Source: Eubacteriales bacterium | GTDB lineage: Bacteria; Bacillota; Clostridia; Lachnospirales; Lachnospiraceae | NCBI GenBank assembly: GCA_030536855.1 | Contig: JAUNPK010000025.1 | Location: 1 to 34,403 of the forward strand | Length of the DNA: 34,403 nucleotides | Reading direction: 5' to 3' | Shown: positions 23,876-34,403 of the stretch, one piece after another | Layout of the letters: each line of letters starts with the position of its first letter | Numbering within the stretch: the stretch's first letter is position 1 | Translations under genes and position numbers: made by a program | Notes under the pieces: generated by a model | What the model was told of the DNA's origin: nothing | The model's input: only the letters and a program-made list of their open reading frames with translations | The model's database searches: none

Positions 23876-24610
23876 TCAATCCTTCCCTTCCCATCTTCTT
23901 TGATGAAGCATATATAGAAAATATGCCAGTAAAATAACAAACTGAACTGCACCCAAAATCATGTCAGACTGCATAGACCCCTCCGCACTGATAAAGGAAC
24001 AAAAATCATGCAGTGCATGCATTAAAACACAAGGAATCAGACTGTTACCCTCGATAAATATGAGTGTGAATACCATCCCATAGACAATAGCAAAGCATAT
24101 CTGAAGAATCGTTGCCAAAAGATCTGCCCCACCTGCCACGTTTAGGATATGGCTCATTCCAAAAAGAACAGATGATAATAGCATGGCTTTGATCACTCCG
24201 TACTTTAGCCACAGATTGCAAATGATTCCCCTGAAAAAGATTTCTTCCGCCATACCAATGCCAAGTGTCAAGAACAAATTGGCGAAAAGAAAGGCTGATC
24301 CTTCTTCCAAATCCACGCCAGCTACAAGAGGCGATAAAGCGATAAGTAATAGCGGTGAATAATATAGTACTCTCTTTGCTGTTCCCTTTTTCACCTTGCG
24401 AAATCCCAGCATGGAAATTCCCCGATACCTGATTATGTAATATGCCAGTGTAATCACTACAAGACTCCAAATCACAGTTCCTCTTACAATGGCGGACTGT
24501 ACCCCTTCCATCTTTGTGATCACCACAATTGCTCCCTGCACAAAGAAGAATAACAGGAGAAGCATTAACGCCACAGTCATTTTAAGCCCAACCTTATCTT
24601 TCTTTTCCAT
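23876..24610 (-). CDS. CPBP family intramembrane metalloprotease (CAAX/Abi)
   Basis: The ATG at 24610, after a GGGGGG stretch, gives 244 residues with about seven membrane segments. The family motifs are present: EEIFFRG (Glu122, Glu123, Arg127), FGMSHI (His154), and a later MHALHDF. CPBP proteases cut within the membrane and in Firmicutes are often found near bacteriocin, immunity or stress genes. It forms a unit with the small membrane protein and the GNAT-membrane fusion upstream (gaps of 21 and 18 bases). The substrate is unknown. Confidence 0.88.
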   Translation of the reverse strand: MEKKDKVGLKMTVALMLLLLFFFVQGAIVVITKMEGVQSAIVRGTVIWSLVVITLAYYIIRYRGISMLGFRKVKKGTAKRVLYYSPLLLIALSPLVAGVDLEEGSAFLFANLFLTLGIGMAEEIFFRGIICNLWLKYGVIKAMLLSSVLFGMSHILNVAGGADLLATILQICFAIVYGMVFTLIFIEGNSLIPCVLMHALHDFCSFISAEGSMQSDMILGAVQFVILLAYFLYMLHQRRWEGKD

Positions 24611-24631
24611 ATTCTTTCCCCCCAATCTGTA

Positions 24632-24778
24632 TTATTCCTTCAAATTGATGGAAACTACCAGTGTAGCATATGGAATATACGAAGCCCAGCCAAACAACCA
24701 CGGCATCGTAAAGTGCCACAGCCCCACCAACATGCTAATCGATGCACCTGTATAATACATAATCTGATAGTTTCTCAT
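24632..24778 (-). CDS. Small membrane protein, 48 residues, possibly truncated
   Basis: An ATG at 24778, with GGAGG 9 bases upstream, opens a 48-residue frame, MRNYQIMYYTGASIS..., rich in Trp and aromatic residues, with one or two membrane segments. The first 35 residues look like the N terminus of a longer polytopic Lachnospiraceae membrane protein family, and the sequence becomes unlike it after SYIP, so it may be an internally deleted relic that still has its start site. It fits tightly between the GNAT fusion and the protease gene. Confidence 0.6.
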   Translation of the reverse strand: MRNYQIMYYTGASISMLVGLWHFTMPWLFGWASYIPYATLVVSINLKE

Positions 24779-24796
24779 AATCCTTCGCCTCCAATG

Positions 24797-25465
24797 TTAT
24801 TTCTGCTTGCGGTCTCCTCGTTGCTCCAAAAGTTTTTTGCGATCTTTTTTAGCAGAGGAATCAAGTGCAGCTCCAATACTTATTCCAAAACAAAGTCCCA
24901 AAGATAAGCCAATTCCGATACTGTTAAAAGATGTGCCGAGAGCAGTACCAATGCTGATTCCAAAGAGCATATAAATTGCCGTCCAGTTTGTAAGTGGTTT
25001 CTCCAAAACAAAACGTGGACCTTCCTGACCTTCTCCATCCGGCACAAATCCACATTTCTCGAGAATGCGCTGGGAAGCTCTGTTCTCCGGTTCAGTCTCC
25101 GCTTCGATAAATACAACATTCGCATTGCCAAAAGCCCACTGTGTCATAGCTTGAACTGCTTCTGTAGTATAGCCTTTCCCCTCTTGATCTGACAGAATAC
25201 CATACCCTATTTCAACAACATTGTCTTTGACAGGTCCCTTAAAGCTGAGAGTACCAATATATGTATCATCCTTTTTCAACGTTATCTTCCAAGGTGCGTA
25301 CCATATTCTATTTTCAGGATCACGCTCGCACCCTAACAGCATTTCACTGTAAGCAGAGCACAGCTCATCTGAGTCTGATGCTTCAATCATTATTTCAATT
25401 TCTTCATCAGACATTGGCTGAATCATCATTCTTTTCGTTTTCACACATAGTTCCTTTTTCTTCAT
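24797..25465 (-). CDS. RimJ-like GNAT acetyltransferase fused to a glycine-rich membrane tail
   Basis: Residues 10-155 are a RimI/RimJ-type acetyltransferase: IGTLSFKGPV, VEIGYGILSDQEGKGYTTEA (acetyl-CoA loop Q-E-G-K-G-Y) and ENRASQRILEKCGF are classic. After RFVLEKPLTNW come two glycine-zipper-like hydrophobic segments (about 163-205, with ISIGTALGTS and GLCFGISIGAAL), then a basic tail ending DRKQK. Such a tail predicts membrane tethering or assembly, unusual for this enzyme class. AAAGGAG lies 11 bases before the ATG. It heads the unit with the small membrane protein and protease genes. Confidence 0.82.
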   Translation of the reverse strand: MKKKELCVKTKRMMIQPMSDEEIEIMIEASDSDELCSAYSEMLLGCERDPENRIWYAPWKITLKKDDTYIGTLSFKGPVKDNVVEIGYGILSDQEGKGYTTEAVQAMTQWAFGNANVVFIEAETEPENRASQRILEKCGFVPDGEGQEGPRFVLEKPLTNWTAIYMLFGISIGTALGTSFNSIGIGLSLGLCFGISIGAALDSSAKKDRKKLLEQRGDRKQK

Positions 25466-25594
25466 TACACTATAAACTCCTTTTTGTTCTTTCCATAGTC
25501 ATCCTTTATCAGTAAAATCGCATATAATTCATCCAATCAAACAATTCCTGCCACTTTAATCTATCTTCTGTCTTTGCAAATGCTGTTCTGCAGC

Positions 25595-26191
25595 TCACTT
25601 CATCCCATAGATTTCAACAAAATGTGACAGATGCACACCTATCTGCGTCCACATTTCTTCCGTCCTGTCAGGCTCTCGGTCTGCAATCTCTATCATCACT
25701 GTTATCGGTGCTACAATTTCTAAAGCAAGCAGATTGGCATCAAACCTACGAATCAGATTCTTTTCCATCATTTTTTCTAACATCAGAGCATACATTTCCT
25801 GATTTCCGGTCAACTGGTGCTTTGATGTAAGTGCCGCAATCTTTTCATTTCTATACTGCTCCTTCGCACAAAATCTTCTGACCTTTTGTATCTGAGGATC
25901 CTTCATTGTGAATCCAACTCGTCTCAGACAATCTTCCTTGAATTCATCCAGCGATTCCGGTATCTTATCCAAATTAGAGCTATTTCCGAAATTCTCATCA
26001 TATTTTTGTTCCATCATTGCAATCAGGGAATCGAGAATATCTTCCTTTCCCCTATAATGTGCATATATGGATGGACCTTTTATTCCCACAGCTTCTGCAA
26101 TTAAATCAATGGATGCCTGGTCATATCCCTTTTCTGAAAATAAATCAAGTGCTGCTAATAGTATTCTGTCCTTTGTTTTTATCCCTTCCAT
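25595..26191 (-). CDS. TetR family transcriptional regulator
   Basis: The start at 26191 (198 residues) follows GGAG; an ATG 21 bases upstream has no ribosome binding site. The N-terminal helix-turn-helix is standard: RILLAALDLFSEKGYDQAS, then IAEAVGIKGPSIYAHYRGKE. The C-terminal ligand-binding part is divergent, as is usual. Its promoter contains two copies of an operator-like sequence, so autorepression is very likely. No efflux pump or enzyme is transcribed divergently; the next gene downstream, the GNAT fusion, is on the same strand across a 129-base gap. Confidence 0.9.
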   Translation of the reverse strand: MEGIKTKDRILLAALDLFSEKGYDQASIDLIAEAVGIKGPSIYAHYRGKEDILDSLIAMMEQKYDENFGNSSNLDKIPESLDEFKEDCLRRVGFTMKDPQIQKVRRFCAKEQYRNEKIAALTSKHQLTGNQEMYALMLEKMMEKNLIRRFDANLLALEIVAPITVMIEIADREPDRTEEMWTQIGVHLSHFVEIYGMK

Positions 26192-26215
26192 TTCGTTTTC
26201 TCCAATCTTCATATA

Positions 26216-26263
26216 TCTAATATCCGTTAGGGATATTGTACCTAGTATCCGTTAGGAAGTCAA
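26216..26263 (-). promoter_or_regulatory. TetR gene promoter with two operator sites
   Basis: On the minus strand, -35 TTGACT (26258-26263) and -10 TACAAT (26235-26240) have a 17-base spacer. One 16-bp site (26241-26256) fills the spacer and a near-identical site (26216-26231) covers the expected start point. Both share TATCCGTTAGG, differ at two positions of 16, and have partial dyad symmetry; their centres are 25 bases apart. This is the layout of a repressed promoter. Confidence 0.75.
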
Positions 26264-26716
26264 TATACCATATATGAAATAAATCACAGCAACTTATAAC
26301 GAAGATGATTATGACTGCGCAGGTGCACCCATCGCATTAACTTTTGAATATGGATTGGTAAATGACTTTTTGTCAGACTGGTGTGAAATGAAAGCAAAAA
26401 ACGAGCTCGCAAATGCCCATTTTATAGGCTTTTGCGAGCTTTTGAAAATTATTCAAACTCGCCAAGTTCTGGCGAATCAAACTCTATTTCCCGTTATTTT
26501 TCTAACCTTTTTAAGTTAGAAAACTCACTATTTCTTTTTATTCACACCCTGTTTTAAAACTTTTTAGTACCAGTAAAAACAGGTTCTATCCCAGTATCCA
26601 TCGGCATTTCAGCGAATGTATCAATTTTTATTTGCATTATCTATTACTCAAATTTTTATGAGGTCTTTTAGATTTTCCATCACTCAAACCACCATGAAGC
26701 ACCTTTGCTTATTTCA
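26264..26716. other. Gene-free stretch with remnants and hairpins
   Basis: About 450 bases with no intact gene. A plus-strand frame at about 26284-26400 (containing YNEDDYDCAGAPIALTFEYG) and a minus-strand frame near 26560-26640 (IDTFAEMPMDTGIEPVFTG) read like protein fragments that I cannot assign. Three hairpins are present: 26404-26440, one around 26459-26475, and 26498-26523 (9-bp stem). It looks like a junction of decayed insertions. Confidence 0.4.
26404..26440. terminator. Strong bidirectional-looking hairpin
   Basis: The arms 26404-26413 and 26431-26440 are perfectly complementary over 10 bases, with a further GCC/GGC pairing inside, and are followed by TTTTG on the plus strand. No intact gene ends near it on either strand; it may belong to the decayed gene on the plus strand. 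Confidence 0.5.
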
Positions 26717-26998
26717 TTACAAATTAAACAAATCTGCGTGTGTTCCGGTATCAACTAAAGTCAATGTGAGAACATCATTTTCCTTCAGATAAATCAATAA
26801 CCAATCCGGCTGAATGTGACATTCCCTGAACCCCTGATATTTCCCATTTAGTTCATGGTCACGATATTTTTCTTCAAGAGGAATATCCTTCTGCAACATA
26901 GTAATAACTTTATCTAAAAGTTTCAAATCCAAGCCTCGTTTCTTTGCCAGCTTAAGACTTTTCTTAAATTTCCCGGCTAGTATTAATTCATATTGCAT
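26717..26998 (-). CDS. YafQ family mRNA-interferase toxin
   Basis: A 93-residue RelE-superfamily toxin. The residues corresponding to the E. coli YafQ active site are all present: His48 (RDHEL), His61 and Asp65 (CHIQPDWLLIY) and His87 (DTGTHADLF). Such toxins cut mRNA on the ribosome. Its start codon shares one base with the stop of the antitoxin gene, typical of coupled type II pairs, so it is probably expressed as an active module. Confidence 0.92.
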   Translation of the reverse strand: MQYELILAGKFKKSLKLAKKRGLDLKLLDKVITMLQKDIPLEEKYRDHELNGKYQGFRECHIQPDWLLIYLKENDVLTLTLVDTGTHADLFNL

Positions 26999-27267
26999 TA
27001 ATCAATATCCTCCAAAGCATCAGAAAAGCTTGCATATCTCTTTGTACTAGGATCTTTGCTGATTCTCTTTGCTTCTTCCATTGCCTCTAATACTTCCGGC
27101 TTATACTGTGGCAGTTCAACGCTAAAAGGAAGTCCTCCTCTTAATACACACTGCTTTAAGAATATATTCATTGCACCGGACATATCCATTCCTAACTGTG
27201 AGAAAAGTTCACTTGCCTGTTTCTTTAAATTTTCATCTATTCTTACTTGTGTAGGTACTGTAGCCAT
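26998..27267 (-). CDS. RelB/DinJ family antitoxin
   Basis: An 89-residue protein with an N-terminal ribbon-helix-helix part (TQVRIDENLKKQASELFSQL, then MSGAMNIFLKQCVLRGGLPF) typical of DinJ, and a charged C-terminal part that should wrap the toxin. GGAGGTGA precedes the ATG. It should bind the inverted repeat over its own promoter and repress the pair. Confidence 0.92.
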   Translation of the reverse strand: MATVPTQVRIDENLKKQASELFSQLGMDMSGAMNIFLKQCVLRGGLPFSVELPQYKPEVLEAMEEAKRISKDPSTKRYASFSDALEDID

Positions 27268-27298
27268 AAAATCACCTCCATCTTAAAATACAATACTA

Positions 27299-27352
27299 AT
27301 ATTATATGCATCTCTTATAATCATATAATATCGTTTTGATTTACATTGTCAA
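27299..27352 (-). promoter_or_regulatory. Promoter and operator of the dinJ-yafQ type pair
   Basis: On the minus strand, a perfect -35 TTGACA (27347-27352) is followed after 16 bases by TATTAT (27325-27330). A 10-bp perfect inverted repeat (27299-27308 with 27322-27331) covers the -10 box and the start region, a natural operator for the antitoxin. Confidence 0.7.
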
Positions 27353-27407
27353 TCATTTGTATTATTTTTCTTGAAATTTCATTTACAGGGTCATTTACAG
27401 GGGATTC
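27321..27407 (-). pseudogene. Relic of an AlbA_2-type regulator linker
   Basis: A minus-strand frame reads ESPVNDPVNEISRKIIQMID and stops at 27321-27323. Repeated PVN units leading into a winged-helix start are typical of the C-terminal linker of Schlafen/AlbA_2-domain regulators. Only this piece remains, and the toxin-antitoxin promoter lies inside it. Confidence 0.3.
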
Positions 27408-27497
27408 CTTCAAATTTCTCCAAATAGCAGCCGTTCTCCTACAAATTCCCCATTACATGCCTTGTAGTTTACTCTTGTGTCTTTGCAGTTTAATTCC

Positions 27498-27641
27498 TTA
27501 TCTGGCGTATGTTGCAAGCTTTTCATCCGGCACATCTGTCTCTACAGGTAATGCCATTTCTTTTGCCTCGCTGACAAGCTCATATTCATAATCATTAATC
27601 CAAATTTCCTCATCCACATACACACATTCATGAATATTATC
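27498..27641 (-). pseudogene. C-terminal gene remnant cut by the IS66 derivative
   Basis: An open minus-strand frame of 47 residues ends at 27498 and is continuous up to the left end of the IS66-like element. It contains ECVYVDEEIWINDYEYELVS and ends KLATYAR. The matching upstream part is not found on the other side of the element. The function is unknown. The stretch 27408-27497 shows no further gene. Confidence 0.4.
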
Positions 27642-27645
27642 GTAA

Positions 27646-27975
27646 GCGCTAAATAAATATGCAAAAAATCAGGCGCCATACATGATGACATATTTAGAGG
27701 ACAGCCACTGTGAGCTTTCTAATAACTTATCGGAGAATTCAATTCGCCCCGTAACAGTGGGGAGACGCAACTGGTTATTCTGTGATACAACAGATGGAGC
27801 TAATGCCAGTATGGCAGTCTATTCGTTATTAGAAACTGCAAGAGCTAATGGATTAAACCCGTATAAATATATGGAGTACATACTTGAAGCAAGGCCAGAT
27901 GGAAGGATGACAGATAAAGAACTGGAGACTTTATCACCTTGGAATGATAATGTAAAAAAGCTGTGCGAAAAGTAA
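27646..27975 (+). pseudogene. IS66 transposase, C-terminal fragment
   Basis: The frame from 27646 encodes YAKNQAPYMMTYLEDSHCEL, SNNLSENSIRPVTVGRRNWLF and GANASMAVYSLLETARANGL, ending at 27975. These are the last part of the DDE domain (with the SEN-SIRP motif holding the final acidic residue) and the IS66 C-terminal domain. About three quarters of the protein is missing, including the first two catalytic Asp residues, so it is inactive. Confidence 0.85.
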
Positions 27976-28026
27976 CTCATAGTAAATATTCGAGTAATGA
28001 CAGATTACTCATAGTAAATATTCGAG
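27975..28026. repeat. 20-bp direct repeat inside the IS66 derivative
   Basis: Two identical 20-base copies (27975-27994 and 28007-28026) lie 32 bases apart, right after the transposase fragment. Each copy has ACTC at the start and TTCGAG at the end. The role is unknown; perhaps a subterminal transposase-binding site. Confidence 0.7.
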
Positions 28027-28030
28027 AAAC

Positions 28031-28069
28031 AAAAACTGCAATCCGGAGAAATCACAGATTGCAGTTTTT
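28031..28069 (+). terminator. Rho-independent terminator of the IS66 fragment
   Basis: A 13-bp perfect stem (28031-28043 with 28057-28069) runs directly into TTTTTT on the plus strand; the A-run on the other side allows function in both directions. Confidence 0.8.
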
Positions 28070-28086
28070 TTAATATACTATTTTAT

Positions 28087-28240
28087 TTAGCGCTTACGTT
28101 CCTTCTTAAGCCTTTCCGCCTCTTCTAGTTCAAATTCAGCCCGTTCAGTCTGCAATTTTGCTGTATCCGATATCATCATCCACTTGTCAGCCTCTTTTTG
28201 AGCTGCCTCGATTTCCTTCTGTTTATCTGTGAGCTGAAAG
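28087..28240 (-). pseudogene. Coiled-coil gene remnant ending inside the IS66 repeat
   Basis: A minus-strand frame encodes a charged helical segment (FQLTDKQKEIEAAQKEADKW, later TERAEFELEEAERLKKER) whose stop codon is supplied by the right terminal repeat of the IS66 derivative. There is no start; upstream it merges with the terminator at 28242-28295. It resembles the coiled-coil part of plasmid or phage proteins, but I cannot name it. Confidence 0.4.
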
Positions 28241-28241
28241 G

Positions 28242-28295
28242 CAAAAAGAAAGGCCCCGACCCTCAGGTAACTACTATCCGAAAATCAGAGCCTTT
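28242..28295 (-). terminator. Terminator of the RNase III-like operon
   Basis: An 11-bp stem with some G-T pairs (28285-28295 with 28249-28259) is followed on the minus strand by TCTTTTT. It begins about 45 bases after the stop of the methionine-rich gene. Confidence 0.7.
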
Positions 28296-28341
28296 CGCTT
28301 CATCAGCTTAGCACATCCTAACCTACAGTAAACATGTTTAA

Positions 28342-28530
28342 TTATTCTTTGTCATCATCAAAAAGACTGCCAAATGAACTACTGCTATCCATAATATGCA
28401 TCTCTCCAGATTCCATATCCATTGCCATTCCCGAACCCATGTCCTGCATCATATGGCCTTCTGTATCCATCATCATTCCTCCACCCATATTCATGCAAAA
28501 ATCTCCGTCCGTAAAATCAAATCTGTCCAT
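28342..28530 (-). CDS. Methionine-rich 62-residue protein
   Basis: A 62-residue protein with 14 Met and many Gly, Asp and Ser residues (FCMNMGGGMMMDTEGHMMQD, then GSGMAMDMESGEMHIMD), ending in an acidic tail, FDDDKE. GGGAGG stands 7 bases before the ATG, the best evidence that it is translated. It lies 15 bases after the stop of the RNase III-like gene and before a terminator, so the two form one transcript. Met- and His-containing low-complexity sequence may bind copper or another soft metal, or be disordered and interact with its partner; neither can be shown here. I know no family for it. Confidence 0.65.
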   Translation of the reverse strand: MDRFDFTDGDFCMNMGGGMMMDTEGHMMQDMGSGMAMDMESGEMHIMDSSSSFGSLFDDDKE

Positions 28531-28545
28531 AGTAAAGCCTCCCTT

Positions 28546-29646
28546 CTATTCTACTTCGTAGTTGTCCAATACATACTGTAGCATTTCAAAAGCCACTTCT
28601 TTTTTAGCCTTTTTCTTTGAGGATGATTCCGTTTCAAAGGATGCATCAACCTCTTCAATACGGCATTTTACGTTCCAAATCGGATTACCATCAGCATCAT
28701 GTGTTTCTATGAACTCATACTTCGGAATACTAAAATATCCACGACGAGCAAGTATCTCTAATTGGTTTATTGCCATTTCTACTGTTGGTTCGTCGATTTC
28801 ATCTCGTATTTTAAACAACAGGTCGTGCTCTACCAGATATTCATAGGCTCTCTTGCACGCCTTTTTACGTGCATCGTTTCTGGACAAACCATATGCTTTA
28901 AATCTGTGAAGATCATTTCGAATCGACATCTCACAAGAATAATTCGCATTATTCAGTTCATAAGTCCCTTGTGGAATAACCTCTATTACATTCGGATCGG
29001 ATGGAGTATATAAACTATACCCCTGATCTTTATATCTAAAATAAGGAATACATCCAAATGACTCATCCCACTCATAAATCAGACGAACATAGTCAGCTTC
29101 TTCACCATTATCTACAATTGAATCCGGACGAAGCATAATCTCAACCACATTTTGGATTCTATCGTAATCATAGTTAGAATCCAAGGCAACAGCACCTAAA
29201 ATTGCTTCGAATAGATCCTCTTTTACAGATGGTTGCTCGGCCATATTCTGTTCTATGTCGCCTTTGCCCATAATCAGAAATTCTGCAAATCCCAACTCAT
29301 CAATTCTCATTGCAAGCGTTTTCTTTTCCACAAGTTTTTGCTTGATTTGAGTTAATTCACCTTCTGATTTCTCACTATGAAATTCCTCCGGTTCCTGCGG
29401 AACTCTAAATGAAATCGGAATCTTCTCCTGTACGTGGAGATCATTTCCAAACCTAGTGGTAAGGTAACGCATTGCCGCTGCACTTAAAACTGTGTCCCCA
29501 ATAAACTCTAAGACCTCATTGTTCTCACCACCATTTTCTTCCGAAAATGATTTTCTCACAAATGCCTGCCGTAATAGTTTCAGATTTTCAAACGTATATC
29601 CAATCTGATTCTGTACTACGGTTTCAAAATACTCTTTCTTTGCCAT
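28546..29646 (-). CDS. Accessory RNase III-like nuclease with two dsRNA-binding regions
   Basis: The ATG at 29646, with AAGGAG 7 bases upstream, gives 366 residues against about 230 for housekeeping RNase III. Residues 1-175 form an RNase III domain: NNEVLEFIGDTVLS provides Glu44, Glu47 and Asp51, and KEDLFEAILGA provides Asp144 and Glu147, with the same spacing as the E. coli catalytic set. An insert of about 30 residues (68-100) splits the domain. Residues about 190-275 look like a divergent dsRNA-binding domain (ending SRNDARKKACKRAYEYL), and 291-361 like a standard one (ending KKKAKKEVAFEMLQYVL). It should bind and cut double-stranded RNA. The genomic context is a defence island, not the usual rnc neighbourhood. 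Confidence 0.85.
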   Translation of the reverse strand: MAKKEYFETVVQNQIGYTFENLKLLRQAFVRKSFSEENGGENNEVLEFIGDTVLSAAAMRYLTTRFGNDLHVQEKIPISFRVPQEPEEFHSEKSEGELTQIKQKLVEKKTLAMRIDELGFAEFLIMGKGDIEQNMAEQPSVKEDLFEAILGAVALDSNYDYDRIQNVVEIMLRPDSIVDNGEEADYVRLIYEWDESFGCIPYFRYKDQGYSLYTPSDPNVIEVIPQGTYELNNANYSCEMSIRNDLHRFKAYGLSRNDARKKACKRAYEYLVEHDLLFKIRDEIDEPTVEMAINQLEILARRGYFSIPKYEFIETHDADGNPIWNVKCRIEEVDASFETESSSKKKAKKEVAFEMLQYVLDNYEVE

Positions 29647-29869
29647 AAAAAAACTCCTTTCGACAACTGAGTGTGAAAGGGGCATAATAATCTAACACAA
29701 AATAGACTACTCATAAGTTAGTAATCGTCTGTATTAGACATGGATCTTAAATTTTCTTATCTATTTTCATGTATTTACTAAAGCACACTTGCATATGCAG
29801 AAATAAATCTCGTACAAACAGAACATAAAATTTAAAAAACATCACGCCCCGATATTTGGTTACGTATGT

Positions 29870-29899
29870 ATTTTATCATGACTCCTAACATCCTGTCAC
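29870..29899 (-). promoter_or_regulatory. Likely promoter of the RNase III-like operon
   Basis: On the minus strand, GTGACA (29894-29899) and TAAAAT (29870-29875) are 18 bases apart. The leader to the ATG would be about 215 bases, long and AT-rich, so a closer promoter cannot be excluded. Confidence 0.45.
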
Positions 29900-29911
29900 T
29901 AAAAAATTGTA

Positions 29912-29936
29912 ACTTGTGGTCAGATTGACCACAAGT
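29912..29936. promoter_or_regulatory. 25-bp perfect palindrome upstream of the RNase III-like promoter
   Basis: Half-sites ACTTGTGGTCA and TGACCACAAGT flank the centre GAT. It ends 12 bases upstream of the -35 box. A close relative is at 22165-22189. Its position suggests an activator or repressor site rather than a terminator, as no T-run follows. Confidence 0.6.
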
Positions 29937-29977
29937 GTTCAGAGGCAAACACGATTATCGTTTTTTACATAAAAAAA

Positions 29978-30258
29978 GGCAAAGTGAATTATCCTCCCAA
30001 AAACAGTTTCCCAAAAATATATAAACTCTGATAATTCTGGGAAATAAGAAGATAACCTTAGATACAAAATACTCTCTAATGCCTGTATTTACAAGGTTTA
30101 TCTCCTATAATATGAAGATGAAAAAAGACCTTTTCAGGATAAATGACTTTGCCCCTGAACAGGAGTCCCAAAATGGTTCCAAACAAGGCCTTATTCATCT
30201 TCATATTCTGTTTTTGGGGATAGTCCACTTTGCCCTTTTCAGGATAAACACCTTTGCC
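29978..30258. repeat. Four copies of an 18-base motif plus inverted repeat
   Basis: Copies lie at 29978-29995 (plus orientation), 30136-30153, 30217-30234 and 30241-30258 (minus orientation). All begin GGCAAAG and have TATCC near the end; translated, each gives GK-V/G-x-YP. The second copy lies between 14-bp inverted arms (30109-30122 and 30194-30207). It may be a small dispersed repeat or binding-site cluster. Confidence 0.6.
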
Positions 30259-30457
30259 CTTTAACAATTTCCGCTATTCAAACTCCTCTTTGCCAAGTTG
30301 TTATGTGGTGTTTTTTGTTGGTTTTGGTGGTAGAAATCAGGGAGTTTTGTCTGGTTTCTACCTGTTGCGTGGATTTTTAGGGGATTGTATTGTCATTTTG
30401 TTGTCAGTAACACTCCCTCTATTACCTCTCTCATTTATAATGCAACCCTTATATATT

Positions 30458-33040
30458 TTAACTCCAAGCACCATATATTTCATTTCTCTTTTTAAATGCC
30501 TCTTTTCCACCTTCCATAATATTGACTATGTCATTATGTGTTTCCTCTGAATCTACCGTTCCGCACTTTAGCTCGATAGACTCATCATCGTTATGTTGTA
30601 CTGTGACTACTCTTTCAGCATCGCCCAAAACAGGAATATTGGCATTGTGTGTTGCAAATATAAATTGCATATCTTCTTTTTCCTTTTTAATAGTTTGTAT
30701 AAGTTCCTCATAAATCACTTGATTGTCCAAATCATCTTCTGGTTGATCAACTATTATTACATCACTGTCATGTTGAGTTAAAATAAACAATATCAAGGCT
30801 GATGCTCTTTGTCCAAGAGAATGCTTACTCAATAGTTTTCCATGATAAGTTATATTGATTTTATCAGGTGTATCTTCAATAACCATCTCTTTATAGTTAT
30901 CTGCAATTTTGGCTGCGACCTTTGCATAAATAATATCTGTACAATATTGTTTTATCCGCTCTCCGTCATGTAAATAATATTCTTCAATAATTGCTGCTAA
31001 GTCAGTAAAATCGTTACTCATCTCTGCGTACTTTACTTCGGATAACCCCGTTCCTTTAAAAAATGTCATTAATTTATCTTTAAGAACATCTTTTTCACCT
31101 TTGAATTCAATATTTACCGCAAGTTGATCTTGCTGCTGATTAATTTCCTTAGTTGCATTTTGATAAGCAATAAAGGTTTTTCTCAAATTCTCGTTTCGAA
31201 CATCAAATCCCTTTTGAATGGATAAACATATACTCTCTTTCGTCTTTAAACACTCTTTCAGTTTTGCAATTTTTTCATTATTTTCTGCCAACTTCTTTTT
31301 ATATGTAACATAACTATCTGCATCTAATTGTTCATCATTTATTTCACGTTTAATCTCTGCAAATTCATCTTTTAGAGAATCTATCTTCTGCATTAATTCT
31401 TCTTTAACAGAACAAATTCCTGCCAAAGATTTTTTTAACATCTCTATATTTTGCTTTACTGAATCGATTCCTTCATTCGTTTGCGTGATAAAAGGCGCTA
31501 ATTTCTCAAAAATTTCACTATTATATTGAGAAACATGGCTTTGTAACGAAAGAAGTTCCCTTCCATCTTTTGAACAGGCTTCTTCCAATGATTGAATCAT
31601 TTCTTTAACCCATTCAGAAAGTGTTTCTAACTTTATTAAATCAACATTACAGGAAGTCTGTTTTTTTAATTTCTCATCTAATCCTTTTTCTTGATATATT
31701 TTCAACTTATGTTCTAAAGTTGCATTCTCCGTAGTTAGATCGGCAATTTGCTCTGGAATATCACTCAATGTCCTCAACTTATCAATATCGTCAATCAATT
31801 GTTTTTGGATATCAACAATCTCTCTTTTCATATCAGGAACTTTATCACCAATTATTTTATTAAGAAGTTCATATTCATAACCTTTACGAGTTAGTGCTAA
31901 ATCTTTTTGTCCAAAATACAACGCATTTTTAAGAACAGATTCTACAGGAATATTTAATATATTACCATTCCCGTCATACAATGTGCTTCTCTCTCCATAT
32001 ATTCTTTTTAATACATATTTTTTGTTAAACTTATCAACTATCTCTAATTCAATTTGCCCACCAGAACCAAGCACTGCTTTTACCAACTCATTTTTATATT
32101 TTTCATCTTGTGCCGGTTCTTTATTTAGCGCATAGCGAAGAACTTCCAACACAGAGGATTTTCCACTTCCTCTAATTCCAATCAGTGTATTAAGCTCATG
32201 TGATGGAGAAAAAATCTGATTATCTAATTTCCCACCAACACATTTCATTTTATTAATATATCCGTGACTTATAACTGGTTTCTCATCAAAAACTCGATTA
32301 TTATAATCCATAAGAGCATATTTTACAGCTCCGTAGGAAGCTTCACCAATCTTAATATAGTTCTTTTTATCTCCTTTTCCTATCTCCTCTATTGTTTTGG
32401 GATCTGACCCTTCAAGAAATGCAATATCATATCCCATCCAATCATGCACTTTCTTGATCTTATCCCTGGTACGCACCTTCTGGAATCCCAATACTCTTCT
32501 TTTAAATGCAACATCAGAAGCAAGCTTTTCAATTAATGAGCCTCCACATTCCTCCCAAAATCCTTTTTTTTGCTCAACATGCGCACACACAATGAAATAG
32601 TCCTTGTTCTGCTTGTCCAATTCATTAATAACAGTCAACAAATCCTTTTCTGTACAAGTATTTTCATTTCCGGGATCATCTATGCCTAAAAACAACGCAT
32701 TAACCATTCTTGAAATATGGTCTATTCCATTACATATCCACTCAACTGGATTGAATACTACTAACATATGTACTGAACTTGCGCCTTCTTTTACGGATAA
32801 CTCTACTCCCGGCAAAATGAATATACCATTTCTATTTGCAGCTTTTTTTAACGCTTTATATTGTTCATAATCAAATTTATTATGGTTGGTTATAACTCCA
32901 ACCTCAATACCTTCAGACTTCAATTTATCAACATAGCTGGAAATAAATTTGTCAGACTCACCATTATACTTAAATTCTTTATCACTCACTGTATGCAAAT
33001 GACAATCAAACCTTAAAATCTCCGAACCATTCTCAAACAT
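30458..33040 (-). CDS. TrlF-type protein: PHP domain fused to SMC-like ATPase
   Basis: I start at 33040 (860 residues), where AAAGG stands 7 bases before the ATG; 33079 lacks a site. Residues 8-260 form a PHP phosphoesterase domain with metal-site motifs CHLH (His14, His16), TNHN (His53), GVELS (Glu80) and His91. Walker A is GIRGSGKS (288-295). A long coiled coil covers about 390-690. Near the end are an ABC-signature-like SLGQRASAL, Walker B IIVDQPEDDLDN, and a switch His in FATHNANIPV. This architecture is that of TrlF-family AAA-like ATPases, predicted to act in RNA repair or conflict systems. It follows the DpnII gene by 116 bases, so it may be an add-on to the restriction system. Confidence 0.88.
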   Translation of the reverse strand: MFENGSEILRFDCHLHTVSDKEFKYNGESDKFISSYVDKLKSEGIEVGVITNHNKFDYEQYKALKKAANRNGIFILPGVELSVKEGASSVHMLVVFNPVEWICNGIDHISRMVNALFLGIDDPGNENTCTEKDLLTVINELDKQNKDYFIVCAHVEQKKGFWEECGGSLIEKLASDVAFKRRVLGFQKVRTRDKIKKVHDWMGYDIAFLEGSDPKTIEEIGKGDKKNYIKIGEASYGAVKYALMDYNNRVFDEKPVISHGYINKMKCVGGKLDNQIFSPSHELNTLIGIRGSGKSSVLEVLRYALNKEPAQDEKYKNELVKAVLGSGGQIELEIVDKFNKKYVLKRIYGERSTLYDGNGNILNIPVESVLKNALYFGQKDLALTRKGYEYELLNKIIGDKVPDMKREIVDIQKQLIDDIDKLRTLSDIPEQIADLTTENATLEHKLKIYQEKGLDEKLKKQTSCNVDLIKLETLSEWVKEMIQSLEEACSKDGRELLSLQSHVSQYNSEIFEKLAPFITQTNEGIDSVKQNIEMLKKSLAGICSVKEELMQKIDSLKDEFAEIKREINDEQLDADSYVTYKKKLAENNEKIAKLKECLKTKESICLSIQKGFDVRNENLRKTFIAYQNATKEINQQQDQLAVNIEFKGEKDVLKDKLMTFFKGTGLSEVKYAEMSNDFTDLAAIIEEYYLHDGERIKQYCTDIIYAKVAAKIADNYKEMVIEDTPDKINITYHGKLLSKHSLGQRASALILFILTQHDSDVIIVDQPEDDLDNQVIYEELIQTIKKEKEDMQFIFATHNANIPVLGDAERVVTVQHNDDESIELKCGTVDSEETHNDIVNIMEGGKEAFKKRNEIYGAWS

Positions 33041-33156
33041 ATTTCTACCTTTCCTTGCTATAATATTATTTTCGTCCATGTTTTATAACTATCATATATT
33101 TATATATACATTTTAAAGTTTATGGAAACACACTTCCACTGACTCCATATGCTCAA

Positions 33157-34020
33157 TTATAAAAACACTTTTTCCATAACCCCATTCTCCATATCATCAA
33201 TACTATAAATCGTATCCATGACCTCGAATGTCTCTCTCAGATTTCCTCTTGCACTCTTCCAGCCAATTCCATCTGTAAACCATACAAATGTAAATCCCTC
33301 AATAGTGTCCGCTTCTTGTGCAAGCATTTTATAGCTCCTTGCAGTTTCATTTAGTTTTGAGCCACCGCCGCCATAGAAATTGGTTTCAATACCATAAATC
33401 ATCTTATCCGTCTTGATTACAAAATCAAATCTCTTAGCAGCTTTTCCCTGATTAGAAAGTGCAGATAAATCAATGTCCCACTTTTTCTCAATGTCCTTAA
33501 GGTACATTTCCTTGAAGTAATTTACATCCTTTTCAAATCCTGCTGCCACAATGTACTTTTCAACCAAATCTTCCATCTGGTGACCGCCACGATTCTTACG
33601 ACCATTAGAGTCCAATCCGGTTTCAATACCCAAAGCATAATCCACAAGATTATTTACCAAATGATTTGCAATCATATCAAATAATCCGGTCTTACGCATA
33701 AATACCTTGTACTGCTCCACGCTGTAATTCATCTGCTTGAAATTATATAAGAACGCACCTTCTTCATCCTGTGCATATATTTCATTACCTCTCACCGCAA
33801 GAAGTAATGGAACGCATTGCAATGTTTCTGGATACTTTGTCACTATCTTCTCAAAATCTTCTTCAATATTTTTTGAACCAATCAAGGAATTTAAGATGTT
33901 TAATTCCACCTTGATTTCATCTACATTTCTTACGACCTTTTCAAAGTCAATATAGTAATCATAACTTGATATACTCGGTCTGAACTTACTCAACCATTCA
34001 TCAAAATCTCTTTTTGTCAT
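33157..34020 (-). CDS. DpnII-type restriction endonuclease (predicted GATC)
   Basis: A 287-residue protein with the features of the DpnII/MboI endonuclease family: an N-terminal part around YDYYIDFEKVVRNVDEIKVE and LNSLIGSKNIEEDFEKIV, followed by a nuclease core. The core reads AKRFDFVIKTDKMIYGIETN with FYGGGGSKLNETARSYK after it, holding the acidic residues expected of a PD-(D/E)XK site. The family cleaves GATC when it lacks adenine methylation. The start overlaps the methyltransferase gene by 20 bases, as in the dpnM-dpnA-dpnB layout, so the two are translationally coupled. Confidence 0.92.
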   Translation of the reverse strand: MTKRDFDEWLSKFRPSISSYDYYIDFEKVVRNVDEIKVELNILNSLIGSKNIEEDFEKIVTKYPETLQCVPLLLAVRGNEIYAQDEEGAFLYNFKQMNYSVEQYKVFMRKTGLFDMIANHLVNNLVDYALGIETGLDSNGRKNRGGHQMEDLVEKYIVAAGFEKDVNYFKEMYLKDIEKKWDIDLSALSNQGKAAKRFDFVIKTDKMIYGIETNFYGGGGSKLNETARSYKMLAQEADTIEGFTFVWFTDGIGWKSARGNLRETFEVMDTIYSIDDMENGVMEKVFL

Positions 34021-34403
34021 TCGCTACCTTCTCCATTCTTTTCTTGGATATCTCCAAGTATTCTTCGCTCACATCTATTCCAATAAACTTCCGCCCAAAT
34101 CGTACCGCCTCTACTCCGGTAGTTCCTGATCCACAAAAAGGATCCAAGATAACTTGTCCTTCCTCCGTCGATGCCAGTACAATTTTTTCAAGCAAATATT
34201 CCGGTTTCTGCGTAGGGTGCTTACCTTCTGTTTTCTCCGAAGGTTTCGTCAATGCTCCTGTCCACACATCCTTCATCTGCTTTCCACCGTTCATTTCTTT
34301 CATTTTCTGATAATCAAAAAAATGCCGAGACTTCTTTTCATTCTTCCTTGCCCATAAAATGGTTTCCGTAGAATGCGTGAAGCATCGACATGCTAAGTTT
34401 GGT
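34001..34403 (-). CDS. DpnA-type adenine-specific DNA methyltransferase, 3' part
   Basis: The frame is open to the window edge, giving 133 codons of the C-terminal half of a beta-class N6-adenine methyltransferase. HPTQKPEYLLEKI and the AdoMet-binding LDPFCGSGTTGVEA followed by GRKFIGIDVSEEYLEI are diagnostic; THSTETILWA and GGKQMKDVW match the DpnA side of the family. The catalytic DPPY motif must lie outside the window. DpnA-type enzymes can methylate single-stranded GATC, protecting incoming DNA; a second, DpnM-type methyltransferase is expected further upstream. Confidence 0.9.
   Translation of the reverse strand, partial: PNLACRCFTHSTETILWARKNEKKSRHFFDYQKMKEMNGGKQMKDVWTGALTKPSEKTEGKHPTQKPEYLLEKIVLASTEEGQVILDPFCGSGTTGVEAVRFGRKFIGIDVSEEYLEISKKRMEKVANDKKRF

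What the first reader, a model, noticed from the sequence alone, without database searches (positions are those of the whole stretch)
28342..34403. Candidate composite defence island: DpnII restriction, TrlF ATPase and a dedicated RNase III
A GATC restriction-modification system, a PHP-SMC TrlF-type ATPase and an extra RNase III with two dsRNA-binding regions lie on one strand in about 6 kb, next to a toxin-antitoxin pair and an IS66 relic. TrlF has been linked by comparative genomics to RNA repair and conflict. A double-stranded-RNA nuclease beside it suggests a two-layer system that acts on invading DNA and on phage or damaged RNA. The whole is an inference from context; the single parts are well supported.
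Basis: partly seen in the sequence, partly recalled or inferred. Interest (0 to 1): 0.8.

Follow-up and report, generated by a model that had tools for sequence, protein, structure and literature searches.

The report
Accessory RNase III with structured leader RNA
What looked like one composite anti-phage system is a neighbourhood of independent genes, and one of them, an extra enzyme that cuts double-stranded RNA, recurs in other genomes together with a folded RNA that matches no catalogued family and probably acts as its own on/off switch.

Summary
The parts are real: partial methylase, DpnII, full-length TrlF, and an extra RNase III with two predicted dsRNA-binding domains. The proposed TrlF-RNase III pairing is not conserved. 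Of 299 genomes of the family, 8 hold TrlF and 8 this RNase III; only this genome holds both. No TrlF or DpnII relative was found in the other RNase III loci fetched, some of them short.

What is conserved is a ~180-nt leader RNA (29674-29854, minus) before the RNase III gene, folding into a three-way junction. On 19 loci 92.5% of pair cells are standard pairs and 40 of 63 pairs change on both sides (20.0 in shuffles). Rfam has no match to it. It occurs in 7 of the 299 genomes, all among the 8 with the RNase III. Its closing stem overlaps a hairpin that masks the ribosome-binding site in 19 of 19 loci.

Best reading: a mobile accessory RNase III whose leader is its own substrate and feedback switch. 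A defence role is plausible from context, untested.

The parts
29870..29899 (-). promoter-like site GTGACA-18-TAAAAT preceded by TG, just upstream of the leader RNA
   Evidence: 10 of 12 matches; 15 such sites found in the region against 8.3 in shuffles, so weak alone. -10-like boxes are visible upstream of the leader in the relatives printed (read by eye, not counted).
29674..29854 (-). structured leader RNA: three-way junction of closing stem P1, arm A and arm B
   Evidence: no Rfam match in the window stretch or in six relatives' loci at this place
29840..29850 (-). 5' strand of closing stem P1; pairs with 29679-29689
   Evidence: helix 1, 94.7% of cells paired on 19 loci; coordinates derived by me from the alignment
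29745..29837 (-). arm A: long interrupted stem with the near-invariant tip UAUGNAAGUG
   Evidence: Exceptions to the tip seen: L013 and L018 (UAUGAAAGUA), L025 (UGUGAAAAUG).
29690..29739 (-). arm B: second long stem with a 3-nt bulge on its 3' side
29653..29683 (-). switch hairpin: masks the ribosome-binding site (AAGGAG 29654-29659), shares nucleotides with the 3' strand of P1, followed by seven T (29647-29653)
28546..29646 (-). accessory RNase III, 366 aa: nuclease domain plus two dsRNA-binding domains
   Evidence: (E47, D51, D144, E147 invariant in 14 sequences; their role as catalytic residues is recalled from E. coli RNase III)
28342..28530 (-). small acidic, Met-rich 62-aa ORF directly downstream; a homologue lies at the same place in L012, and an unrelated-looking small acidic ORF follows the gene in L013, L016, L018 and L049
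29912..29936 (-). terminator-like hairpin between trlF and the RNase III unit
   Evidence: 11 pairs; 3 such sites found in the region against 1.4 in shuffles; fold -15.8 kcal/mol
30131..30259 (-). remnant with 24-nt repeats in the trlF-RNase III gap (an insertion-sequence end by look only)
   Evidence: families D1, D2, pairs I1, I2
30458..33079 (-). TrlF family ATPase: independent neighbour, not part of the RNase III unit
33157..34020 (-). DpnII-family endonuclease: independent neighbour
34001..34402 (-). C-terminal part of an adenine-type DNA methylase, cut by the contig end

Best explanation
The region is a neighbourhood of separate tenants. One is a self-contained mobile unit: its own promoter, a ~180-nt three-way-junction RNA, a switch hairpin over the ribosome-binding site, and an RNase III with two dsRNA-binding domains. 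Proposed mechanism (inferred): the two long arms of the leader are the enzyme's own substrate. While the leader is whole, P1 forms, takes nucleotides from the switch hairpin and favours translation (in most members perhaps also read-through of a terminator-like hairpin). When enough enzyme is present it cuts the arms, the 5' strand of P1 is lost, the hairpin closes and synthesis stops. Foreign double-stranded RNA, such as phage RNA, would draw the enzyme away from the leader and raise its synthesis. Shown here: the anatomy, covariation, cis linkage, overlapping pairings and patchy spread. Inferred: cleavage, the direction of the switch, and a defence role. TrlF and DpnII act on their own.
For: Covariation: 40 of 63 pairs with both-side changes (shuffles 20.0 +- 2.4), 92.5% of cells paired (slid controls 43.9-49.9%) on 19 loci, 5 of them not used for the model. 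Linkage: model R1 hits 7 of 299 family genomes, all among the 8 with the RNase III; of 14 RNase III genomes 12 have one sense copy, placed just upstream of the gene, the other hits being the antisense of the same place. In 23 distinct loci of the core family R1 hits the same place at E <= 3e-6 in 19 and weakly (E 0.0025-0.18) in 4. Switch: ribosome-binding-site hairpin in 19 of 19, sharing 1-7 nt with P1; own arms pair better than swapped arms (-8.97 against -5.92 kcal/mol, 0 of 10,000 permutations, 15 distinct pairs). Predicted site accessibility falls from 0.28 to 0.11 on loss of the 5' part; higher in the whole leader in 17 of 19. In 5 relatives' leaders (L014-L017, L046) identity to the window is 0.86-0.88 where the coding DNA has 0.62-0.63 and sequence further upstream 0.50-0.56. 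Active-site positions invariant in 14 sequences. Autoregulation by cleavage of its own mRNA is known for RNase III of E. coli, Streptomyces and S. aureus (passages of PMC3386247).
Against: No experiment. The ribosome-binding site is predicted mostly paired even in the whole leader (0.28 free on average; below 0.1 in L022, L023 and L025; L016 goes the other way, L013 is level), so the ON state may need more than P1. The U-tract is missing in L023, L024, L048 and L049. In distant members the leader is no more conserved than the coding DNA (0.57-0.64 against 0.57-0.62). Loci are related, so shuffle and permutation results are not independent trials. The housekeeping RNase III might be what cuts the leader. 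Two divergent relatives (L010, L027; 27-30% identity) lack the RNA. Defence is inferred from neighbours alone.
Confidence: 0.6

Rival explanations
1. The leader RNA is also a product in its own right: the terminator-like hairpin releases it as a small RNA that holds the RNase III inactive, as in type III toxin-antitoxin systems. Infection or loss of the RNA frees the nuclease, which degrades cellular or phage RNA.
For: Order RNA, terminator-like hairpin, ribonuclease gene. U-tract (at least 6 T in 8) directly behind the hairpin in 15 of 19 against 10 of 209 other genes with a ribosome-binding site in the same loci; 11 of the 15 belong to one closely related group. Single cis copy, patchy and mobile. 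In type III systems the RNA precedes the toxin gene, a terminator lies between, and the toxin itself cuts the RNA (passages of PMC5086642).
Against: No tandem repeats in the leader. The nuclease is RNase III, not a ToxN fold. Four members lack the U-tract. Toxicity is unknown.
Confidence: 0.2
2. TrlF, DpnII and the RNase III form one composite defence system acting on invading DNA and RNA.
For: Same strand within about 6 kb; defence-type families near both TrlF and RNase III elsewhere.
Against: Only the window's genome has both of TrlF and RNase III among 299; no TrlF or DpnII relative in the other RNase III loci and no RNase III in 7 TrlF loci; terminator-like hairpin, promoter-like site and repeat remnant between them.
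Confidence: 0.04
3. The cassette is a prophage or island gene that serves the mobile element (regulation or processing of its own transcripts, or removal of dsRNA that would trigger host defence) rather than defending the host.
For: Members on five distinct viral contigs (L038, L039, L040, L041, L044), in four of them directly behind two recombinase-like ORFs and in L038 two small ORFs further on (Resolvase and Recombinase Pfam hits in 10 and 9 of 148 neighbours).
Against: Other members sit near restriction or other defence-type genes with no recombinase seen near them in my listing, such as L047 and L017.
Confidence: 0.16

Closest known systems
RNase III autoregulation (E. coli rncO, Streptomyces absB, S. 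aureus rnc)
   Same: An RNase III whose own mRNA carries double-stranded RNA that the enzyme is thought to cut (passages of PMC3386247; the rncO paper itself is not held).
   Different: Here the leader is a ~180-nt three-way junction with strong covariation and a ribosome-binding-site switch hairpin, and it belongs to an accessory, mobile enzyme with two dsRNA-binding domains. In S. aureus the cut lies in the coding sequence.
Type III toxin-antitoxin systems (ToxIN, CptIN, TenpIN)
   Same: RNA gene, terminator-like hairpin, then a ribonuclease gene; patchy and linked to mobile DNA.
   Different: No tandem RNA repeats; RNase III fold instead of ToxN fold; hairpin overlaps the ribosome-binding site.
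Ordinary bacterial RNase III (TIGR02191)
   Same: Nuclease domain, active-site positions and a dsRNA-binding domain; best solved matches are E. coli and Aquifex RNase III.
   Different: Scores 123.4 bits, below the equivalog cut-off of 166.25; a second dsRNA-binding domain; a separate RNase III ORF exists in the genome.
TrlF family ATPase (NF045780) and DpnII restriction
   Same: Neighbours in the window that meet their family models.
   Different: Not linked to the RNase III in other genomes.

Membership tests
Bacterial RNase III | RNase III nuclease domain with conserved acidic active site | tested here: met
   PF00636 E 2.5e-14; E47, D51, D144, E147 invariant in 14 (catalytic role recalled); fold matches 7r97, E 1.6e-10
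Bacterial RNase III | Equivalog model TIGR02191 above its cut-off | tested here: not met
   123.4 bits against 166.25; so a divergent relative, not the housekeeping equivalog
RNase III autoregulation of the rncO kind | Conserved base-paired element in the enzyme's own mRNA | tested here: met
RNase III autoregulation of the rncO kind | The enzyme cuts its own mRNA and thereby lowers its synthesis | not testable with these tools
   needs a cleavage assay and a reporter
Type III toxin-antitoxin | Tandem repeats in the antitoxin RNA | tested here: not met
   no repeat family inside 29674-29854 among those listed (the 20 largest of 53 direct families are shown)
Type III toxin-antitoxin | Rho-independent terminator between RNA and toxin gene | tested here: inconclusive
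   hairpin plus U-tract in 15 of 19; it also overlaps the ribosome-binding site; the consensus scan of the window did not list it
Type III toxin-antitoxin | ToxN/CptN/TenpN toxin | tested here: not met
   RNase III fold; no Pfam hit to such a toxin among the families listed for this protein
Conserved TrlF-RNase III system | Pairing in unrelated genomes | tested here: not met
   both in 1 of 299 genomes, the window's own
TrlF family | NF045780 above its cut-off over the full length | tested here: met
   503.8 bits against 350, profile 1-944 of 944
Any Rfam 15 family | Match of the leader to a covariance model | tested here: not met
   no match with E up to 1 in window 24000-34403; in L004-L009 three matches, none of them at the leader

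The most novel reading that the evidence does not exclude
A new kind of RNA-protein conflict unit: a mobile RNase III guarded by its own three-way-junction RNA, which serves at once as decoy substrate, attenuator and sensor, so that any rival double-stranded RNA (for example phage RNA) releases and amplifies the nuclease. That would be a bacterial dsRNA sensor with built-in feedback.
Probability: 0.22. Interest if true: 0.86.

Novelty: new variant of a known kind. Interest (0 to 1): 0.6.

Why it matters
If true, it adds an RNA family absent from Rfam 15, tied to one enzyme family, and offers a simple design for sensing double-stranded RNA in bacteria: the nuclease's own mRNA is the reporter of how busy the nuclease is. 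It also shows that shared location in an island, as between TrlF and this RNase III, can mislead, while conservation of non-coding sequence points to the true unit.

Tried and rejected
Composite TrlF-DpnII-RNase III system: rejected on co-occurrence.

Known RNA family: none in Rfam. tRNA or tmRNA in the window: none.

RNA without the enzyme: a DNA pattern for the arm A tip found 19 viral stretches, none with the RNA (best R1 match E 0.68 on 19 of 19). The pattern was too narrow: it missed the viral loci L038-L044 found by protein. The leader DNA has no match in the phage or plasmid collections.

Wider spread of the enzyme: 11 of 392 genomes of the order, all in one family; 1 of 348 of the phylum, the window's own. 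Weak nuclease-domain matches in 9 phage records, none covering 80% of the query, and in 30 plasmid records, one of which (Ruminococcus albus, L027) covers 83% at 30% identity and lacks the RNA.

Leader more conserved than the protein everywhere: true for near relatives only.

Defence context: 148 neighbour proteins (at least 120 aa, within 5 kb; 154 found, the window's 6 left out) match 194 PADLOC families at E <= 1e-15, against 26 families for 134 proteins of random places in some of the same genomes (169 found, 35 left out to stay under the size limit). The tool counts families, not proteins, and many families describe one methylase, so this overstates the contrast. The random places were few and came from five genomes, while the neighbours also include viral contigs.

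Papers: no paper on TrlF, none on such an RNA, and among the 15 of 116 papers listed for an extra RNase III none looked bacterial by its title (listing only). Searches gave listings; I read passages of PMC3386247, PMC5086642 and PMC10503654 only. Most subscription papers are not held, so novelty in print is not shown.
Full report
1. The observation. The four genes are present on the minus strand and meet their family models, apart from the RNase III, which falls below the equivalog cut-off, and the methylase, which is cut by the contig end. The window equals contig C46 of a 2.4 Mb, 54-contig genome. Another RNase III-like ORF, of 253 aa, lies on contig C36, so the one here is extra. AlphaFold2 on 14 relatives predicts a nuclease domain and two full dsRNA-binding folds (pLDDT 84.9, pTM 0.70); the best solved match by fold is E. 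coli RNase III 7r97 (E 1.6e-10).

2. The same 299 genomes of the family were searched for both genes. The RNase III is in 8 (E <= 1e-20) and TrlF in 8 (E <= 1e-40; 7 over the family cut-off). Only the window's genome is in both lists; about 0.2 would be expected by chance. A blastp search of the ORFs in the RNase III loci found TrlF and DpnII in the window only; several of these loci are short, so some neighbours could be missed. In 7 loci around TrlF from other genomes, tblastn at E 1e-3 finds no RNase III, DpnII or methylase relative. TrlF there has other company: BrxL and PglZ in L110, SspB- and SspC-type genes in L107. TrlF is thus a defence-island gene with changing partners, and the RNase III is not one of them.

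3. Between the two genes. The gap of about 770 nt holds a remnant with 24-nt repeats (30131-30259), a terminator-like hairpin (29936-29912) and a promoter-like site (29899-29870). Such sites also arise by chance (terminators 3 found, 1.4 in shuffles; promoters 15 found, 8.3 in shuffles), but the promoter-like site sits right before the conserved leader, as do -10-like boxes in the relatives I printed (read by eye).

4. The leader RNA. Upstream DNA of the relatives showed a block far more alike than anything further upstream. In L014-L017 and L046 the leader is 0.86-0.88 identical to the window's, the coding DNA 0.62-0.63, the sequence further upstream 0.50-0.56; in distant members the leader is not more alike than the coding DNA. 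Single-sequence folds agree on a closing stem P1 and two long arms. On 14 loci 91.5% of cells pair, with 23 pairs changed on both sides against 12.2 in shuffles. On 19 loci, 5 of them not used for the model, 92.5% of cells pair, with 40 of 63 pairs changed on both sides (20.0 +- 2.4 in shuffles; none of 500 shuffles as high), and slid controls pair in 43.9-49.9% of cells. The second alignment was fitted to the model, so it leans to the structure; the loci are related, so these are not independent trials. In the first alignment arm B of L021-L023 is misaligned. The tip of arm A reads UAUGNAAGUG in most members; L013, L018 and L025 depart from it.

5. Linkage. Model R1 hits 7 of the 299 genomes, all among the 8 with the RNase III (strict filters, so weak copies elsewhere could be lost). 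In 14 genomes with the RNase III, 12 have one sense copy just upstream of the gene, and the other hits are the antisense of the same place; the two without are G563, whose gene starts at a contig edge, and G063, a divergent relative. Over 23 distinct loci of the core family the model hits the right place at E <= 3e-6 in 19 and at E 0.0025 to 0.18 in four viral loci (L039, L041, L044, L040), whose folds look alike by eye. Of the other sources, L042, L043 and L045 duplicate L038 and L015 and hit likewise; L010 and L027 (divergent), L019 (fragment), L020 and L026 (ordinary RNase III) and L050 (contig edge) have no hit. No Rfam family matches.

6. The switch. Directly after P1 a hairpin masks the ribosome-binding site in 19 of 19 loci and shares 1 to 7 nucleotides with the 3' strand of P1; own arms pair better than swapped arms (-8.97 against -5.92 kcal/mol; 15 distinct arm pairs; 0 of 10,000 permutations). 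The predicted chance that the site is free falls from 0.28 in the whole leader to 0.11 when the part 5' of the arm A tip is gone, and is higher in the whole leader in 17 of 19. The site is therefore mostly paired even in the whole leader, which speaks against a simple ON state. In 15 of 19 loci at least 6 of 8 bases behind the site are T, against 10 of 209 other genes with such a site in the same loci; 11 of the 15 are close relatives, and L023, L024, L048 and L049 lack the tract. The hairpin may thus also act as a terminator.

7. Spread and company. The RNase III is in 11 of 392 genomes of the order, all in one family, and in 1 of 348 of the phylum, the window's own. It also sits on five distinct viral contigs, in four of them directly behind two recombinase-like ORFs (Resolvase and Recombinase Pfam hits in 10 and 9 of 148 neighbours). 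Elsewhere it lies within a few kb of a type I restriction subunit (L011), a HamB-like helicase (L015), a C5 methylase and an AIPR/AbiU-like gene (L017), or an Eco47II-type restriction pair (L047). This fits a mobile accessory gene and makes defence plausible; it does not show it.

8. Mechanism. Best reading: the arms of the leader are the enzyme's own substrate; the whole leader favours synthesis through P1; cutting removes the 5' strand of P1, closes the hairpin and stops synthesis; competing double-stranded RNA reverses this. The anatomy, covariation, linkage and overlapping pairings are shown; cleavage, the direction of the switch and the biological role are inferred. RNase III autoregulation is known in E. 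coli, Streptomyces and S. aureus (passages of PMC3386247). The order RNA, terminator-like hairpin, ribonuclease also recalls type III toxin-antitoxin systems (passages of PMC5086642), but tandem repeats and a ToxN fold are absent.

9. Verdict. The composite system is not supported; the island is ordinary in kind. The structured RNA fixed to an accessory RNase III is the finding of interest. I found no print record of it, within the limits of the searches named and of an open-access library.

Noticed in passing
window 27641-28098: A 458-nt IS66 remnant with perfect 17-nt inverted ends and only the C-terminal part of the transposase: a possible non-autonomous element.
   Followed up: partly
window 30131-30259: Three 24-nt repeat copies and matching inverted pairs between trlF and the RNase III; they look like the end of an insertion sequence.
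   Followed up: no
window 28342-28530; L012 1743-1931; L049 9082-9285; L016 11161-11331: Small acidic ORFs directly after the RNase III, of at least two unrelated-looking sequence types; candidates for inhibitors or dsRNA mimics.
   Followed up: partly
L016, L046, L049: Macro-domain and ADP-ribosylglycohydrolase-like genes recur near the RNase III (Macro in 4 and ADP_ribosyl_GH in 3 of 148 neighbours; places read by eye).
   Followed up: no
L010; L027 9545-11065: A longer, divergent RNase III branch with an N-terminal extension and no such leader RNA; one copy on a Ruminococcus albus plasmid. L010 has a different strong hairpin upstream.
   Followed up: partly
L110 7331-16183; L107 117-10144: TrlF relatives next to BrxL and PglZ genes and next to SspB- and SspC-type genes, which hints that TrlF is a frequent add-on to modification-based defence.
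   Followed up: partly
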